Shown: positions 2,540-12,514 of the stretch, in pieces
How positions within the stretch are numbered: the stretch's first letter is position 1
Layout of the letters: every line of letters begins with the position of its first letter
Assembly (NCBI GenBank): GCA_009697495.1
Contig: SHUN01000011.1
Coordinates: forward strand, 1 to 16,645
Origin: Bryobacterales bacterium
Lineage (GTDB): Bacteria > Acidobacteriota > Terriglobia > Bryobacterales > Bryobacteraceae
DNA: 16,645 nucleotides
Direction: 5' to 3'
The notes under the pieces: model-generated
The model's input: only the letters and a program-made list of their open reading frames with translations
Told to the model about the DNA's origin: nothing
Databases searched by the model: none
Program-made: the position numbers and the translations under genes

Positions 2540-3361
2540 ATGCGTGTCCTCCACCTCGACCTCGGCCGGCAGATGCGCGGCGGGCAGTATCAGGTACTGC
2601 ACCTGATGGAAGCGTTGTCGGCGCGCGGCGTTGCGCAGCGTTTCCTCAGCCCGCACGGCGAGCCCTACGCGATTCGAAAGCTTCGCCGCGACGCGGACAT
2701 CGTGCATGCCCATGACGCCAAAAGCCACACAGTCGCGGCACTGTTCGCCAACGCTCCGCTCGTGGTCAGCCGGCGCGTCGCGTTTCCAATCAAAGATACG
2801 TGGACGAGCCGTTGGAAGTATCGCCAACCCGTTTTGTATCTGGCCGTTTCGAACTACGTTGCCGGCATACTGATGAAGGCTGGCGTGCCCGCCGCGAAAA
2901 TCGAAGTTATTTACGACGGCGTTCAGCCCATGCCGCTTTCCACTCGTACTGGTCCGCTGATTGCGTGCGCCTCGGACGACCCGATGAAGGGGTCCGATCT
3001 CATTCGCCAATCCGGCGCCAACGTGGTTTTCACCGCCGATCTCCCCGAAGCGCTGAAAACGGCCAGGGGCCTGCTGTACATCACGCGCGAGGAGGGCCTT
3101 GGGTCGGCCGCGTTGCTGGCGATGGCGGCCGGCGTGCCGGTGGCCGCCAGCCGAGTCGGCGGCCTTCCGGAGGTCGTCCAGCACGAACGGACCGGCCTGT
3201 TGACGGATAACGATCCGCAGGCGATCGCCGCAGCCGCGGCGCGCCTTCTTACGCCCGAAGCCGACGGCTGGGCGGCACAGGGAAGGGAACTCGTGCAAAG
3301 GCGTTTTCTTGTCAGCCACATGGCGGAGGCGACACTGTCGGCTTACCGGAGAATGTTGTAA
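2540..3361 (+). CDS. Compact GT4-family (group 1) glycosyltransferase
   Basis: A 273-residue GT-B glycosyltransferase, shorter than the usual 350-400 residues. It probably transfers a sugar from a nucleotide donor to a lipid, polysaccharide or small acceptor; the substrate cannot be read from sequence. Visible: the N-terminal RVLHLDLGRQMRGGQYQVL with the glycine-rich loop (GGQYQVLHL, 14-22), an acceptor-domain segment AVSNYVAGILMKAGVPAAKIEVIYDGV, and the C-terminal donor domain with EEGLGSAALLAMAAGVPVAA followed by GGLPEVV. The second Glu of the EX7E motif is Leu193. ATG 2540 follows the ypdA stop by 7 bases, so the two are probably cotranscribed. The last codons and the stop lie inside the first copy of a 34-bp direct repeat (3333-3366). 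BshA was considered because of the YpdA neighbour, but the N-terminus does not resemble BshA. Confidence 0.85.
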   Translation: MRVLHLDLGRQMRGGQYQVLHLMEALSARGVAQRFLSPHGEPYAIRKLRRDADIVHAHDAKSHTVAALFANAPLVVSRRVAFPIKDTWTSRWKYRQPVLYLAVSNYVAGILMKAGVPAAKIEVIYDGVQPMPLSTRTGPLIACASDDPMKGSDLIRQSGANVVFTADLPEALKTARGLLYITREEGLGSAALLAMAAGVPVAASRVGGLPEVVQHERTGLLTDNDPQAIAAAAARLLTPEADGWAAQGRELVQRRFLVSHMAEATLSAYRRML

Positions 3362-3366
3362 ACTAC
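3333..3366 (+). repeat. 34-bp direct repeat, copy 1 (3' end of GT4 gene)
   Basis: These 34 bases, beginning CACTGTCGGCTTACC and ending TTGTAAACTAC, recur exactly at 4036-4069. This copy encodes the last residues of the GT4 gene (LSAYRRML) and its TAA stop. A LSAYRRML-type tail is normal for GT4 proteins, so this copy is taken as the original coding copy. A short internal inverted pair TTAC/GTAA is present. Confidence 0.95.
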
Positions 3367-3433
3367 GGCAAGCGCCGCTACCACAAAGCCGTTGACTGGC
3401 AGCGGGCTGAAGCCATTCTGAAATTGGGCGCGC

Positions 3434-3463
3434 TTGACAAGGCAAAGCCTCGCCGCGCACACT
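3434..3463 (+). promoter_or_regulatory. Candidate sigma70-type promoter for the ORF6N gene
   Basis: A perfect TTGACA at 3434-3439 is followed after 18 bases by CACACT (3458-3463), a weak -10 element. Transcription would start at about 3470, practically at the ATG at 3472, so the message would be leaderless. This agrees with the lack of any Shine-Dalgarno sequence before the gene. The -35 box is convincing and the -10 box is not. Confidence 0.35.
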
Positions 3464-3471
3464 AGCCGGTA

Positions 3472-4002
3472 ATGGTCAGATCGAAAATTCCGGCCGATCC
3501 GAATGTCGAAACCATTCCGATCGAAAGTGTCGCCACCCGGATTTACCTGATCCGGAGTCAGAAAGTTTTACTCGACCAAGACTTGGCTGAACTCTACGGC
3601 GTGACGACCGGGAACCTGAATTTGGCGGTTCGTCGCAACCAACGTCGTTTTCCCGATGATTTCATGTTCCAACTTTCCCCTGCCGAGTTTGATTCTTTGC
3701 TCTTGCAAAATGCAATAACAAAAGGGCGCGGCGGGCGGCGTACGCCTCCCATCGCTTTCACGGAGCAAGGCGTTGCGATGTTATCCAGCGTATTGAGAAG
3801 TGACCGTTCCATTGATGTGAACGTGATCATCATGCGGACTTTTGTCCGGCTTCGCCAGGTTCTTGCCACGAATGAGGACCTGGCCCAAAAAATGGCGAAG
3901 CATGACCGGCAGATTGCCATACTCTTCGAGCACGTACAAAAGATGCTCTCTCCGGCGCCGGTAAAGAAGAACCCCATTGGTTTCGTTACGCCAAAAATCT
4001 GA
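3472..4002 (+). CDS. ORF6N domain-containing protein
   Basis: A 176-residue protein of the ORF6N family (KilA-N-related, probably DNA-binding), common in phages, integrated elements and accessory regions. Residues about 18-105 carry the domain: the characteristic RIYLIRSQKVLLDQDLAELYGV, then NLAVRRNQRRFPDDFMFQLS and the closing PPIAFTEQGVAMLSSVLRS. Residues about 115-158 are a helical tail with coiled-coil character (VRLRQVLATNEDLAQKMAKHDRQIAIL), followed by a basic end. The gene has no Shine-Dalgarno sequence. It stands between two exact 34-bp direct repeats and interrupts what would otherwise be a GT4-kinase junction, so it is read as a small inserted cassette. The molecular role of chromosomal ORF6N proteins is not established; DNA binding is inferred from the family. 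Confidence 0.9.
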   Translation: MVRSKIPADPNVETIPIESVATRIYLIRSQKVLLDQDLAELYGVTTGNLNLAVRRNQRRFPDDFMFQLSPAEFDSLLLQNAITKGRGGRRTPPIAFTEQGVAMLSSVLRSDRSIDVNVIIMRTFVRLRQVLATNEDLAQKMAKHDRQIAILFEHVQKMLSPAPVKKNPIGFVTPKI

Positions 4003-4035
4003 GGGCCGCGACACAGCCAAAGTCACACGGCACAG

Positions 4036-4069
4036 CACTGTCGGCTTACCGGAGAATGTTGTAAACTAC
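4036..4069 (+). repeat. 34-bp direct repeat, copy 2 (upstream of kinase gene)
   Basis: Exact copy of 3333-3366, offset by 703 bases. It lies just before the kinase start codon at 4078. It contains a TAAACT (4062-4067) that could act as a -10 element. Removing one repeat copy with the 669 bases between the two would leave the GT4 stop 13 bases from the kinase ATG. Confidence 0.95.
4062..4067 (+). promoter_or_regulatory. Candidate -10 element for the kinase gene, inside repeat copy 2
   Basis: TAAACT matches TATAAT at four of six positions. It would place the transcription start near 4074, four bases before the ATG. No good -35 element is visible at 16-18 bases upstream. Offered mainly because the kinase gene has no Shine-Dalgarno sequence and only T-rich sequence between the repeat and the ATG. 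Confidence 0.25.
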
Positions 4070-4077
4070 TTTTTTAC

Positions 4078-6816
4078 ATGAATAGCGATCCACGATGGCT
4101 CTTGATGAAAGAGATCTACTTCGCGGCCCAGTCGCTGTCCGGGGAAGCGCAGGCGCAGTATCTCAAGGACCACTGCCCGGACGAAGGGCTTCGCGCGGAA
4201 GTAGAACGGCTGCTCGGCGATTCGACCGAAAGCATCACCCACGTGACGCTCGATTCCCTGGTGCCGCCGCAATCGGTGACGGAGAGCGTGAACGCCCTCG
4301 GCCCCGGGTCCATGCTGGGGCACTATCGGATCAAGCGGAAATTGGGCGTCGGCGGCATGGGTTGGGTTTTTGAGGCGGATGACGAAAAACTGCTCCGCGT
4401 CGTTGCCATAAAGGTGCTTCCGCCCGGCCAGGATGACGAGCCAATGCGCCGCCGCCTGATGCGCGAGGCGCAGTCGGCGTCCGCGCTCAATCATCCCAAT
4501 ATCGTTACCGTTTACGAAGTAGGGCGCCACGGCGACACGGATTTTATCGCGATGGAACGCGTCCACGGAAAGACTCTGCGGGAACTCGCCGGGCCGGCCG
4601 GTCTGGGAATCAAGACTGCATTGCGAATTGCAGCGCAGATTGCCGACGCCCTCGCCGCCGCCCACGATGCCAATATCGTCCACCGCGATCTGAAACCCAG
4701 CAATATCATGGTCACCGAACGCGGTCTGGTGAAGGTCCTCGACTTCGGAATCGCCAAGCAAGTGGGCAAGATGACCGCCATGGCCAGCGGCGGCGACGTC
4801 TCCATCACCCGCAGCGGAGAAGTCATCGGAACGCTCTCCTACATGTCGCCCGAGCAGGCGCAGGGCCACGCCGTCGATCCTCGTTCCGACATCTTTTCTT
4901 TTGGCTCCGTTCTCTACGAAATGCTCAGCGGCCGCCGTGCGTTTATGGCGGAAACCGGACTGGAGACGATCGCCGCGATTTTCTCAAAGGACCCGGCGCC
5001 GTTGCGGGAACTTGTGCCGGGATTGCCTCGGGGCGTCGAGCGCGTCATCGCCAAGTGTCTGCAGAAAAAGAGCGTCGAGCGATGGCAGCACATGTCCGAT
5101 GTCAAGCTGATCCTGCAGGACCTGGAGAAGGATTTTGAACTACCGGCCGAAGTGGAAACGGTTGCGCCGGTGTCGCTCCGCGGCTGGCGGGGGCTCGCGA
5201 TCGGCGCCGGCGTGCTGGCGGCCGCTTCAATGGCCTACGTCTCGGTTTCGTACTTCAACCGGATGGACCCGGAGCCGAAATCACTCCTCCGCCGCGTCAC
5301 CGCCGATGCGGGGCTTAGTACTTCCCCCGCCTTGTCACGCGATGGCAAATTGATCGCTTTCGCGTCGGACCGCGCCACGCTGGGAAATCTCGATATTTGG
5401 GTGCAGCAAGTCGGCGGCGGCGAGCCGATACGCCTCACCACCAGCTCTGCCGACGAGACCGATCCAACCTTTTCTCCCGACGGTACGCGCGTCGCCTATC
5501 GCTCCGAGGCCGATGGCGGCACCATCTCCGCCATCCCCACGCTTGGCGGCGATCCGGTCGTGCTGGCCCGGGAGGGACGCGGTCCACGGTTCTCCCCCGA
5601 TGGCCGGTCCATCGCCTACTGGACCGGCGACCGGAATAGCTTTGTCTTGGGTGCCTCTCGAATCTTTATCGCCGACGCGAACGGCGGAACCCCCCGGCCC
5701 ATTCACCCGGGAATGTCCTGGGCGCATTCGCCCATCTGGTCGCCGCGCGGCGAAGCGCTGTTGGTGTATGGGATGAAAGATCCGGTTGCGTCCTCGCTGG
5801 ATTGGTGGGTCCTGCCGCTGGATGGGAAGGCTCCTGTGAAGACCGGAGCCATGACAGTTACCGCACCCATACCCGGCGGGAATCTCTCGCCCGCCCTGGA
5901 CTGGATTGACGATGGCCTTAGCCGCGTTCTCTATCCATCCATTTCCGGCGACGCCACCAATCTCTGGGAAGTTTTCTTATCCACCGCTTACCAGGCGCAA
6001 CCGCCTGCCCGCCGTGTTACGCATGGTCCCGGCAGCCATTTGCGCGGGGCAGTTGCCGGTGGCGCAACCGCTTTTTCAGACGAAACGGAAAATGCCAATA
6101 TCTGGGAAATTCCGATCGATCCCAAACAGGGCATGCCCGCCGGTGAACCGCGCCGCGTCATCGGCAGGCAAGCGCCGGAACTGGCGCCTTCCTTGTCCGG
6201 TGACGGCCGGCAAATGGTCTTCATTCGCCGGACTTTCGGCAGTTATAGCGTGCTCGCCATGGATCGGGATGGCGTCAAGGAACGCGTTCTCACGACGTCT
6301 CCCCGCCTGCTGCCCAGCGCCCATGTCACATCTGATTTCGGTAAACTCCTTTTCACCAACGGCCGCTACGATCTATCCGCCATTCCCATGGCCGGCGGCG
6401 CTCCGGAAGTTCTCTGCGCCGCTTGCGGAATCATCACCGGCGTTTCGTCTGACGGCGGTCTGATCCTCTACGAACCCAAACGGGATGAGGACCTCCTCCT
6501 TTTCGACGTCGCCGCCAGGAAGACAATAAGACTGGCCGAACGGCCTAACAAACAGTCCACGATTACCGGCGCGCGTTTCTCGCCCGACGGGAAATGGATC
6601 GCCTTCATCCTCGCGGAAAGCGCGGCCCGCCGCTCACGCATTTTTCTAGTCCCGCTCAGCCCCAACCGCGCCTCGCCGTTCGGCGAATGGATCCCGTTTC
6701 GGAAGAGTCCCACGCCGCCATGGATCCCGCGTGGTCGTCGCAGGGCGACAGAATCTATTTCACTTCGGAACGCGACGGGTTTCGCTGTATCTGGGCTCGC
6801 CGCCTTGACCGGGTAA
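4078..6816 (+). CDS. Membrane Ser/Thr protein kinase with TolB/PD40-type beta-propeller; 3' end frameshifted
   Basis: A PknB-like (Hanks-type) kinase of 912 residues. Residues 1-78 form a helical N-terminal extension. The kinase domain spans about 82-355 with the P-loop GVGGMG (90-95), VAIK lysine (K112), HRDLKPSN (202-209), DFG (222-224), and GTLSYMSPEQ (251-260). All catalytic residues are present. A single hydrophobic segment (about 370-392) would anchor it, leaving the kinase in the cytoplasm. The rest (about 400-880) is a beta-propeller of PD40 repeats (DGKLIAFASDR, FSPDGTRVAYRSEADGG, FSPDGRSIAYWTGD), possibly a periplasmic sensor. After GEWIP (nt 6682-6696) the family-like sequence continues in another frame; the annotated tail after that point, rich in Arg and Pro, is probably not native. 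The start is the first ATG after the repeat. Confidence 0.9.
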   Translation: MNSDPRWLLMKEIYFAAQSLSGEAQAQYLKDHCPDEGLRAEVERLLGDSTESITHVTLDSLVPPQSVTESVNALGPGSMLGHYRIKRKLGVGGMGWVFEADDEKLLRVVAIKVLPPGQDDEPMRRRLMREAQSASALNHPNIVTVYEVGRHGDTDFIAMERVHGKTLRELAGPAGLGIKTALRIAAQIADALAAAHDANIVHRDLKPSNIMVTERGLVKVLDFGIAKQVGKMTAMASGGDVSITRSGEVIGTLSYMSPEQAQGHAVDPRSDIFSFGSVLYEMLSGRRAFMAETGLETIAAIFSKDPAPLRELVPGLPRGVERVIAKCLQKKSVERWQHMSDVKLILQDLEKDFELPAEVETVAPVSLRGWRGLAIGAGVLAAASMAYVSVSYFNRMDPEPKSLLRRVTADAGLSTSPALSRDGKLIAFASDRATLGNLDIWVQQVGGGEPIRLTTSSADETDPTFSPDGTRVAYRSEADGGTISAIPTLGGDPVVLAREGRGPRFSPDGRSIAYWTGDRNSFVLGASRIFIADANGGTPRPIHPGMSWAHSPIWSPRGEALLVYGMKDPVASSLDWWVLPLDGKAPVKTGAMTVTAPIPGGNLSPALDWIDDGLSRVLYPSISGDATNLWEVFLSTAYQAQPPARRVTHGPGSHLRGAVAGGATAFSDETENANIWEIPIDPKQGMPAGEPRRVIGRQAPELAPSLSGDGRQMVFIRRTFGSYSVLAMDRDGVKERVLTTSPRLLPSAHVTSDFGKLLFTNGRYDLSAIPMAGGAPEVLCAACGIITGVSSDGGLILYEPKRDEDLLLFDVAARKTIRLAERPNKQSTITGARFSPDGKWIAFILAESAARRSRIFLVPLSPNRASPFGEWIPFRKSPTPPWIPRGRRRATESISLRNATGFAVSGLAALTG

Positions 6817-7872: not shown

Positions 7873-7902
7873 CCTAAGATCTGTCCACGGACAACCCACG
7901 AA

Positions 7903-7912
7903 AGAGAGGAAG
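7903..7912 (+). promoter_or_regulatory. Strong purine-rich ribosome binding site
   Basis: AGAGAGGAAG ends 5 bases before the ATG at 7918. It is the clearest Shine-Dalgarno-like sequence in the window; most neighbouring genes lack one. It suggests high translation of the small basic protein. Confidence 0.6.
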
Positions 7913-7917
7913 TTTGT

Positions 7918-8244
7918 ATGGCAACAAAAGCAAAAAAGATTGTAAAAAAGGCCGCAGCTCCGGCTAAGAAGGCCGCTGCTCCGGCGAAGCAGGCCGTTGC
8001 TCCGGCGAAGAAGGCCGCTGCTCCGGCGAAGAAGGCCGTTGCTCCGGTGAAGAAGGCTGTTGCTCCGGCGAAGAAGGCTGTTGCTCCGGCGAAGAAGGCC
8101 GTTGCTCCGGCGAAGAAGGCTGTTGCTCCGGCGAAGAAGGCTGTTGCTCCGGCGAAGAAGGCTGTGCCGGCGAAGAAGGCTGTGACGGCGAAGAAAAGGC
8201 CGCCCACCACGCCTCCTCCAGCCACTCTCTTCCCTGTAGGTTGA
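7918..8244 (+). CDS. Histone H1-like Lys/Ala/Pro heptad-repeat protein
   Basis: A 108-residue, extremely basic, low-complexity protein with no globular domain. After MATKAKKIVKK come ten heptads of the form A(A/V)APAKK (residues 12-81), two shortened six-residue units AVPAKK and AVTAKK (82-93), and a Pro/Thr tail ending LFPVG. Such sequences resemble the C-terminal tail of eukaryotic histone H1 and the tails of bacterial nucleoid proteins (AlgP, HctB, PhaF-like), which bind DNA through lysines. A nucleoid-associated or DNA-compacting role is inferred. It has its own promoter-like sequence and a strong ribosome binding site, so it is probably expressed independently. The gene ends before a hairpin shared with a convergent gene. 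Repeat number probably varies between strains. Confidence 0.85.
   Translation: MATKAKKIVKKAAAPAKKAAAPAKQAVAPAKKAAAPAKKAVAPVKKAVAPAKKAVAPAKKAVAPAKKAVAPAKKAVAPAKKAVPAKKAVTAKKRPPTTPPPATLFPVG
7951..8196 (+). repeat. 21-bp coding tandem repeats (heptad array)
   Basis: About ten 21-bp units, most of the form GCTGTTGCTCCGGCGAAGAA plus one base, followed by two 18-bp units. Adjacent units near the middle of the array (8050-8150) are almost identical at the DNA level, differing mainly in the GCT/GCC Ala codon. The first units are more diverged. The pattern fits recent expansion by slippage or recombination. It is coding, in frame, and not a CRISPR array. Confidence 0.9.
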
Positions 8245-11818: not shown

Positions 11819-11864
11819 GAGCTGCGACCGATCCGTTTCCGAGCCGCGACCGTAAGGGAGCGGT
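11819..11864 (+). repeat. REP-like repeat, left cluster (one diverged partial and one full copy)
   Basis: A partial copy GAGCTGCGACCG (11819-11830) precedes a full copy at 11841-11864 (GAGCCGCGACCGTAAGGGAG and four more bases). Bases 11836-11864 are an exact inverted match to 12396-12424 on the other side of the transposase gene. The unit has short internal complementary ends and could fold into an imperfect hairpin. The placement next to uxaC's 3' end is typical for extragenic REPs. Confidence 0.85.
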
Positions 11865-11874
11865 CCCTGCGTCC

Positions 11875-12369
11875 TCAAAAATCGGCGCCCACACACACCG
11901 CCATATCTTCGCCCTGCTCCTCAACGACATACCGGATCGCTTCCCGCACATCTTGATCCTTCCATAGCCACCGGGTGCTGCCATGGCGCGCCCAGCGCTT
12001 TCGATCGGATCCATCTGGCCCCAGCCGGTTTAAACCCCGGCTGGCGTATGACTTGAAATCGTTCATGATTTTCTCGGGCCGCGGCTCAGCCTCCACGACG
12101 ACATGCACATGATTGGTCCGCACATGGGCGGCCAACAGACCCCAACCTCGGTGCATACATACCTCCCGCAGTGCATGCAGCACTACCGCCCGGCTGTCCC
12201 GGTCGAGCAAATACGGCACCTGATTCATGCGCTGCCTTTCATCGGAGACGCGTTGCGGGTCAGCTTCCAACAATCGGCCCCTGGGCATATTGTGGCGCCG
12301 ATCTACAGAACCCGATTCATCGCCGTGCAGGTGCCCGCCGTAAGTTGCGAACGTGATGAAGTACCTCAT
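11875..12369 (-). CDS. Y1 (IS200-like/REP-associated tyrosine) transposase, RAYT type
   Basis: A single-domain HUH transposase of 164 residues that would nick and rejoin single-stranded DNA. It begins MRYFITFATYGGHLHGDESGSV, characteristic of the RAYT-like branch. It has the metal-binding HUH motif NHVHVVVEA (H87, H89), the presumptive nucleophile Tyr108 in NDFKSYASRGLN, and the C-terminal WARHGSTRWLWKDQDVREAI followed by YVVEEQGE. All catalytic residues are present and the frame is intact. The longer frame could start at a TTG (12381), but ATG 12369 gives the standard N-terminus. The gene is flanked by inverted REP-like sequences, which is the arrangement of RAYT loci; these genes are usually single-copy, domesticated, and act on dispersed REPs. 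Confidence 0.92.
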   Translation of the reverse strand: MRYFITFATYGGHLHGDESGSVDRRHNMPRGRLLEADPQRVSDERQRMNQVPYLLDRDSRAVVLHALREVCMHRGWGLLAAHVRTNHVHVVVEAEPRPEKIMNDFKSYASRGLNRLGPDGSDRKRWARHGSTRWLWKDQDVREAIRYVVEEQGEDMAVCVGADF

Positions 12370-12395
12370 AGTCTCGTACAAATCAACTCTTACAC

Positions 12396-12440
12396 ACCGC
12401 TCCCTTACGGTCGCGGCTCGGAAAGTCGCGGCTCGCTACA
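12396..12440 (+). repeat. REP-like repeat, right cluster copy A plus partial copy
   Basis: Bases 12396-12424 are the exact reverse complement of 11836-11864 and include ACCGCTCCCTTACGGTCGCG. A partial second copy GTCGCGGCTCGC follows immediately at 12425. The order full-then-partial mirrors the partial-then-full order on the left side, so the whole cluster is an inverted repeat with a small indel. Confidence 0.85.
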
Positions 12441-12485
12441 CCGGCTCAGCCAAGCGCACCTGGTACCCTCACATTCACGGGAACT

Positions 12486-12514
12486 CCGCTCCCTGGCGGT
12501 CGCGGCTCGGTACA
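12486..12514 (+). repeat. REP-like repeat, copy B
   Basis: CCGCTCCCTGGCGGTCGCGG followed by CTCGGTACAC matches copy A with two substitutions (TTA replaced by TGG at the centre). It lies in the same orientation as copy A, about 90 bases further on. It is in the gap before the prepilin peptidase gene, a gap of about 200 bases in which nothing else is recognisable apart from a promoter-like box. Confidence 0.8.

What the first reader, a model, noticed from the sequence alone, without database searches (positions are those of the whole stretch)
3333..4069. ORF6N gene inserted as a cassette between exact 34-bp direct repeats
Seen: 3333-3366 and 4036-4069 are identical over 34 bases. The first copy is the 3' end of the GT4 gene, the second sits directly before the kinase gene, and one ORF6N gene lies between. 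Removing one repeat plus the intervening 669 bases rebuilds a GT4-kinase junction with a 13-base gap. The repeat restores the GT4 stop on one side and the kinase upstream region on the other, as site-specific elements that integrate at gene ends do. No integrase is present, and 34 bases is long for a target duplication by a transposon. This may be a small non-autonomous mobile unit carrying an ORF6N gene.
Basis: partly seen in the sequence, partly recalled or inferred. Interest (0 to 1): 0.7.

Follow-up and report, generated by a model that had tools for sequence, protein, structure and literature searches.

The report
Inserted gene carrying its own binding-site palindrome
A small regulator-like gene was inserted at the end of a host gene between 34-base repeats, and genes of its family carry, inside their own coding sequence, a palindrome whose letters follow the presumed DNA-reading amino acids of the protein they encode.

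Summary
A congener (G002) has the same GT4-kinase junction with one copy (32/34) and the same 13-bp gap; a second is also empty. So this is a real insertion. Exact repeats of 15 bp or more straddle ORF6N genes in 14 of 101 loci and 9 of 92 in a later set, against 2 of 347 and 0 of 52 control positions; many are tandem copies or dispersed repeats. Some clean cases duplicate a host gene's 3' end; at one such end other cargo also occurs, and most ORF6N genes there lack the duplication. What moves these units is unknown.

The larger result: 226 of 241 ORF6N genes hold a 25-bp palindrome (9+ of 11 pairs), kept even in another reading frame. Its bases track helix residues 47, 48, 51 (Q51-TCACAA, E51-TCGCAA, K51-TTCCAA, R51-TGCCAA; simple rule right in 215 of 231) and loop residues 86-91. 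ORF6N proteins therefore very probably bind inside their own gene. Autorepression is the likeliest use; not shown.

The parts
3333..3366 (+). left 34-bp direct repeat; last 26 coding bases and stop of GT4 plus 5 bp
   Evidence: single-copy counterpart in G002
4036..4069 (+). right 34-bp direct repeat, 8 bp before the kinase start codon
3367..4035 (+). 669-bp inserted segment, GC 54.0%
   Evidence: absent from the empty sites L003/L007; single copy in own genome; GC
3364..3465 (+). truncated ORF tail (33 codons and stop) starting inside the left repeat; origin unknown
   Evidence: no family match; found in 1 of 237 family genomes, its own
3472..4002 (+). ORF6N-domain gene, 176 aa
   Evidence: PF10543 E=3.5e-32; PADLOC PDC-S05 E=7.1e-50; PHROG anti-repressor families
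3696..3722 (+). intragenic palindrome TTTGCTCTTGCA-AAA-TGCAATAACAAA (9 of 11 scored pairs), the proposed binding site of the encoded protein
3607..3636 (+). codons of the presumed recognition helix, residues 46-55; residues 47 (G), 48 (N), 51 (L) are those that track palindrome bases across the family
   Evidence: model; covariation; residues
3727..3744 (+). codons of loop residues 86-91 (RGGRRT), which track the outer palindrome bases across the family
2540..3361 (+). GT4 glycosyltransferase gene, left host gene
4078..6816 (+). Ser/Thr kinase-PD40 gene, right host gene

Best explanation
A 669-bp piece of foreign DNA carrying an ORF6N gene was inserted at the 3' end of the GT4 gene in this lineage, with a 34-bp duplication that leaves the GT4 stop and the kinase upstream region intact (shown by empty sites; recombination agent unknown). 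The ORF6N protein is a winged-helix-like DNA-binding protein whose target is a palindrome (commonest skeleton TTGA-nn-T-nn-CA-nnn-TG-nn-A-nn-TCAA) inside its own coding sequence: helix residues 51/48 read the inner bases, residue 47 the next, loop residues 86-91 the outer ones (inferred from strong covariation). In the genomes scanned, perfect matches to the skeleton lie mostly at ORF6N loci, so the likeliest action is in cis: the protein binds within its own gene and represses its transcription (inferred). With the operator inside the reading frame, the gene stays autoregulated wherever it lands and whichever promoter it falls under (inferred).
Confidence: 0.75

Rival explanations
1. The palindrome is an RNA hairpin in the ORF6N mRNA (stability, translation, RNase site) and not a protein-binding DNA site.
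For: Near-perfect stems with a 3-nt loop, and strong covariation.
Against: G-T mismatches (30) are not commoner than A-C mismatches (55), as sense-RNA pairing would predict. Bases follow helix and loop residues, which an RNA hairpin does not predict. Solitary copies also lie upstream of some start codons.
Confidence: 0.07
2. The covariation is a protein-level effect: helix residue 51 packs against the amino acids encoded by the palindrome.
For: Residues 78 and 81, encoded by the palindrome, covary with the same bases, as they must.
Against: In the other-frame class the palindrome encodes different amino acids and still follows residue 51 in 14 of 16. Synonymous codon choice is constrained too. 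The encoded loop is low-confidence in the model.
Confidence: 0.03
3. The insert arose by a one-off illegitimate event (end joining or template switching with a 34-bp duplication), not through a mobile unit.
For: Single copy, no terminal inverted repeats, truncated ORF at the left end, variable repeat lengths between cases.
Against: Direct repeats straddle ORF6N genes more often than control positions in two sets, and a few duplicate a host gene 3' end; one 3' end was used with different cargo in different genomes.
Confidence: 0.4
4. The unit is a gene-end cassette integrated site-specifically by a recombinase acting in trans, with the repeats as att sites.
For: Insertion at a gene 3' end with stop restored; copies of a LarA-like 3' end behind ORF6N, TA-like and membrane-protein-like cargo in different genomes; two tyrosine recombinases over the cut-off elsewhere in the own genome.
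Against: The repeat sequences of the cases printed look unrelated to one another (no formal core search was made). No recombinase is linked to the unit. Of 7 loci with ORF6N behind the LarA-like gene, 5 show no copy of the 3' end and in L334 the ORF6N lies beyond the copy.
Confidence: 0.3
5. The ancestor carried the insert and G002 lost it by recombination between the repeats.
For: Such a loss would also leave one clean copy.
Against: The more distant G003 is also empty at the same junction, and the insert has lower GC.
Confidence: 0.07

Closest known systems
Phage lambda O protein and oriLambda
   Same: A DNA-binding protein whose specific sites (iterons) lie inside its own gene (PMC4488673, passages read).
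   Different: Lambda O is a replication initiator with four 19-bp repeats; here one inverted repeat in each gene, no replication partner looked for or seen, family-wide.
repABC plasmids: oriV inside the repC coding sequence
   Same: Cis-acting site inside the gene; a section heading says RepC acts in cis (PMC3155836, passages and headings seen).
   Different: Plasmid replication module; no palindrome with an amino-acid code in what I read.
ORF6N / Bro-network phage anti-repressor domains
   Same: Window protein matches PF10543 and PHROG anti-repressor families.
   Different: Stand-alone gene, rare in the phage and viral collections searched (5 phage records; 19 viral loci) but in 69 of 200 family genomes. 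Titles and abstract starts of the 5 papers holding the word ORF6N mention no intragenic site (one passage read).
PADLOC PDC-S05 (candidate phage defence)
   Same: Residues 13-147 match profile 10-145 of 306, E=7e-50.
   Different: A candidate label only; nothing here tests defence.
Coding palindromes of nematomorph mitochondria; Rickettsia palindromic elements
   Same: Palindromes inside coding sequence (PMC6649704, abstract read; Rickettsia elements seen in the listing and otherwise recalled).
   Different: The abstract does not describe them as sites read by the encoded protein.

Membership tests
ORF6N domain family (PF10543) | Profile match over the curated cut-off | tested here: met
   111 bits against 27.8, residues 23-107
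DDE-type insertion sequence or MITE | Terminal inverted repeats at the insert ends | tested here: not met
   No arm pair of 9 bp or more joins the two insert ends
DDE-type insertion sequence or MITE | Transposase gene inside | tested here: not met
   The insert's plus-strand ORFs are the ORF6N gene and a 33-codon tail; neither matches a transposase
Integrase-type gene-end element | Insertion at a gene 3' end with direct repeats and a clean empty site | tested here: met
Integrase-type gene-end element | Linked integrase | tested here: not met
   None among the 15 window proteins scanned; two tyrosine recombinases elsewhere in the genome
Integrase-type gene-end element | Excision as a circle | not testable with these tools
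   needs reads or PCR
Integron gene cassette | attC site and integron integrase | not tested
   no attC search was run
Autoregulator with intragenic operator (works like lambda O / repC in siting) | Site inside the gene | tested here: met
Autoregulator with intragenic operator (works like lambda O / repC in siting) | Protein binds the site | tested here: inconclusive
   strong covariation with helix and loop residues, no binding assay
Autoregulator with intragenic operator (works like lambda O / repC in siting) | Binding lowers its own expression | not testable with these tools
   needs an experiment
Winged-helix DNA-binding fold | Structural match to a solved winged helix | tested here: inconclusive

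The most novel reading that the evidence does not exclude
ORF6N genes are self-addressed single-gene mobile units: the protein acts in cis on the palindrome inside its own gene not only to repress it but to drive its own copying or excision, as lambda O acts on the origin inside its gene, and duplications of host gene 3' ends are the footprint of that movement. Recognition helix, loop and site co-evolve as one self-referential unit in which the DNA site dictates part of the protein sequence.
Probability: 0.12. Interest if true: 0.95.

Novelty: new variant of a known kind. Interest (0 to 1): 0.78.

Why it matters
A widespread gene family, for which the paper searches made here found almost nothing, appears to carry its own binding site inside its reading frame, with a code readable from sequence: residue 51 gives the inner site bases in 215 of 231 genes. 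That offers a directly testable target for a family labelled only as anti-repressor-like and a phage-defence candidate, and shows protein sequence constrained by a DNA site across phyla, even in two reading frames. It would also explain how a gene moved under foreign promoters could keep its own control. The insertion at the GT4 gene is a clean example of such a gene arriving at a host gene end.

Tried and rejected
ORF6N-specific mobility: weakened, because TA-like and membrane-protein-like genes occupy the same kind of site behind a LarA-like gene, and 5 of 7 ORF6N genes there (L312, L328, L332, L337, L338) show no copy of the 3' end. Of the 14 repeat cases, L041, L081 and L085 are tandem ORF6N copies, L120 and L057 are copies of the palindrome, L096 is low-complexity, L114 looks like a dispersed repeat, and L088 and L080 are 15-mers; the strict set L113, L072, L098, L040, L045 was chosen after inspection (5 of 101 against 1 of 347, p=0.003). 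Of the 9, L240 is dispersed (16 copies), L298 repetitive, L296 and L260 ORF6N-derived; L304 and L237 were not inspected. Mismatch-tolerant comparison, window included: 20 of 102 against 15 of 219.

Regulon: the skeleton (up to 1 mismatch) was sought in 20 genomes. Perfect matches fell at 12 places: 9 in ORF6N stretches, 1 just upstream of one (G077), 1 elsewhere in G077 that I did not examine, and 1 non-palindromic in G025. One-mismatch hits were scattered, and the reversed control pattern also hit once in 6 of 20 genomes. The skeleton misses sites with other outer bases: 5 of the 13 ORF6N-bearing genomes gave no hit. Avoidance of shared specificity between co-resident genes: not supported. 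KilA-N as comparison family: too rare (1 of 61 genomes). Donor of the ORF tail: not found in 237 family genomes. No PDB relative by sequence. In one search the printout of three of the six control residues (45, 50, 54) was wholly or partly cut from view and is not used.

Full report
1. The observation. The 34-bp repeats are exact and occur twice in the window. The unit is 703 bp; the 669 bp between the repeats hold an ORF6N gene (3472-4002) and most of the last 33 codons of an unknown ORF (3364-3465). The insert has 54.0% GC against a mean of 60.2%. It is single-copy in its own draft genome (2.36 Mb, 62.6% complete).

2. It is an insertion. I searched the own genome and 60 relatives with the GT4 protein. 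In G002 (GT4 96% identical) the GT4-kinase junction has one copy of the repeat (32 of 34 identical) and the same 13-bp gap; flanks are 409 of 434 identical. G003 has the two genes adjacent without insert. Among the loci fetched these were the only two in which DNA comparison showed this junction, and both are empty. The two window copies agree with each other where G002 differs, as expected of a duplication of the local sequence. Loss in G002 is possible but less likely, as G003 is empty too. The insert's DNA matches 2 of 19 genomes of the genus: the own genome, and a 169-bp stretch at 72% in G002.

3. Do other ORF6N genes sit between repeats? In 101 usable loci from two searches made without regard to repeats, an exact repeat of at least 15 bp straddles the gene in 14, against 2 of 347 shifted positions in the same loci (p=3e-8). 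A later set gave 9 of 92 against 0 of 52 (p=0.015). Inspection shows that part of this is tandem ORF6N duplication, palindrome copies or dispersed repeats; a strict set chosen by inspection leaves 5 of 101 against 1 of 347 (p=0.003). Mismatch-tolerant comparison gives 20 of 102 (window included) against 15 of 219. Some clean cases duplicate a host gene's 3' end: GT4 here, a diacylglycerol kinase (L040), an N6 methylase gene (L098), a LarA-like gene (L247); family names. In the genus of the last, 39 of 41 genomes match the LarA-like protein, one of them only weakly. I examined 32 loci there and L247 again (L329 gave no match). ORF6N lies behind the gene in 7 (L310, L312, L328, L332, L334, L337, L338), but only in L310 between two copies of the 3' end; in L334 it lies beyond the copy and in the other 5 no copy was seen. 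Aligning six loci: a copy of the gene's 3' end follows ORF6N in L310, a two-gene unit that looks like a toxin-antitoxin pair in L313, L330 and L334 (my reading of the sequence, not searched; L330 holds further ORFs), and a membrane-protein-like ORF in L341; for L316 the copy is doubtful. So gene-end insertion with duplication is not special to ORF6N. The agent is unknown.

4. A palindrome inside the gene. Looking at the repeat cases I saw the same short palindromes inside and beside ORF6N genes. Aligning 110 genes on the codons of window residues 76-84 showed an inverted repeat centred on the same codon in most. At this fixed centre, 106 distinct genes are 86% paired over 12 positions; the best of the 299 other offsets tested reaches 39%. 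Variable positions covary: d4 97 of 106 paired against 34.8 expected from independence, d5 90 against 44.4, d7 78 against 47.8, d8 84 against 37.0, d13 96 against 50.2; d1 is not constrained (59 against 61.8). In the whole collection (286 ORF6N stretches in 255 loci, 241 distinct 29-mers) 226 have at least 9 of 11 pairs at their best centre; the second-best centre reaches 9 or more in 43 of 241. A later phylum sample gave 29 of 29 besides the window itself, again at best centre, each at codon position 1. Redrawing synonymous codons drops the mean from 10.41 to 4.31 pairs in 204 genes (selected for 9 or more pairs). G-T mismatches (30) do not exceed A-C (55), so RNA pairing is not indicated.

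5. The constraint is on DNA. In 17 stretches the centre falls on codon position 2, and in most of these the same kind of palindrome encodes peptides such as VVTNCDHL or LITNCDKLP instead of LRSQIVTS; 5 more at codon position 3 are mostly chance hits or solitary copies. A skeleton search of 20 genomes gave 12 perfect places, 9 in ORF6N stretches and 1 just upstream of one (limits under Tried and rejected). Solitary copies lie within about 260 bp of some ORF6N genes: 42 in all, 27 with the same inner dinucleotide as the neighbouring gene, of which about 5 compare a site with itself, against 36% for random pairs.

6. The protein reads it. Mutual information between palindrome bases and protein columns (205 proteins, effective number 157) singles out residues 51, 48 and 47, in the predicted helix 46-55, besides the residues that the palindrome itself encodes. 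Residue 51 against d5d4: Q-CA 128, E-CG 43, K-TC 21, R-GC 16, L-TG 7, and the exceptions L-TT 5, R-TC 4, R-AC 3, Q-AA 2, Q-GG 1, K-CA 1. The simple rule is right in 215 of 231; it was read from most of the same genes, so the other-frame class, 14 of 16 right, is the cleaner test. The viral subset is right in 27 of 27 (frame 1) and 5 of 6 (frame 2). Residue 47 against d7: K-G 106, R-A 58, R-G 12, K-A 1 among others. On a FastTree tree without helix and palindrome columns the site dinucleotide changes at least 82 times and residue 51 80 times; over independent pairs on supported branches Q51/CA go the same way in 15.7 of 17 and never oppositely (median p=3e-5), E51/CG 9 of 9, R51/GC 6.7 of 9, K51/TC 6.0 of 7; control residues 123, 144 and 148 give no significant association. 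Outer bases d9-d12 track residues 86-91 (residues 74-85 left out of that scan), so bases and residues map in order. The model (mean pLDDT 85.9) resembles winged-helix DNA binders weakly. In the window, L51 and N48 go with TTGCAA as in most other L51/N48 genes; its palindrome has two broken pairs.

7. How it probably works. Shown: insertion, palindrome, covariation code. Inferred: binding, and its use. A protein whose site lies inside its own gene and is rare elsewhere most simply represses itself by blocking transcription; with the operator inside the coding sequence the unit needs no promoter of its own to stay controlled after landing behind a foreign gene. A role in exclusion between copies is not supported (11 of 47 co-resident pairs share d5d4, expected 14.6, p=0.14; within one locus 3 of 23).

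8. Known relatives. Sites inside the gene of their own binding protein are known for lambda O (PMC4488673, passages) and oriV in repC (PMC3155836, passages). A search for the word ORF6N found 5 papers, none about such a site by title or start of abstract (one passage of PMC10111431 read). Searches around intragenic operators, autoregulation and Bro-network domains listed 18 of 18, 2 of 2, 12 of 14 and 12 of 54 papers; by title and start of abstract none describes it. The library lacks most subscription papers, so novelty is only as good as these searches.

Noticed in passing
window 11836-12424: A Y1 (IS200-like) transposase gene on the minus strand (11875-12381, PF01797) lies between perfectly inverted 29-bp repeats, with a further near copy at 12483-12510: looks like a REP-RAYT unit (my reading).
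   Followed up: no
window 7900-8214: Eleven-fold 21-bp repeat encoding a Lys/Ala/Pro-rich 108-aa protein without a Pfam match, histone-H1-like to my eye.
   Followed up: no
L310, L313, L330, L334, L341 (3' end of a LarA-like gene): The same host gene end carries different small accessory genes in different species of one genus, each followed by a partial copy of the gene's 3' end: a possible cassette hotspot.
   Followed up: partly
L140, L075, L084: Extra palindromes inside the same ORF6N stretch, in L140 two side by side with different inner bases.
   Followed up: no
L214 (G151:C11:183774): An ORF6N remnant, with a stop in the frame matched, still keeps a 10 of 11 palindrome.
   Followed up: no
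L041, L062, L081, L085, L111: ORF6N genes in clusters, neighbours usually with different palindromes (not significant when tested over genomes).
   Followed up: partly
table: Several broken ORF6N matches split near residues 70-83, where the palindrome lies; palindromes may be mutation hotspots.
   Followed up: no
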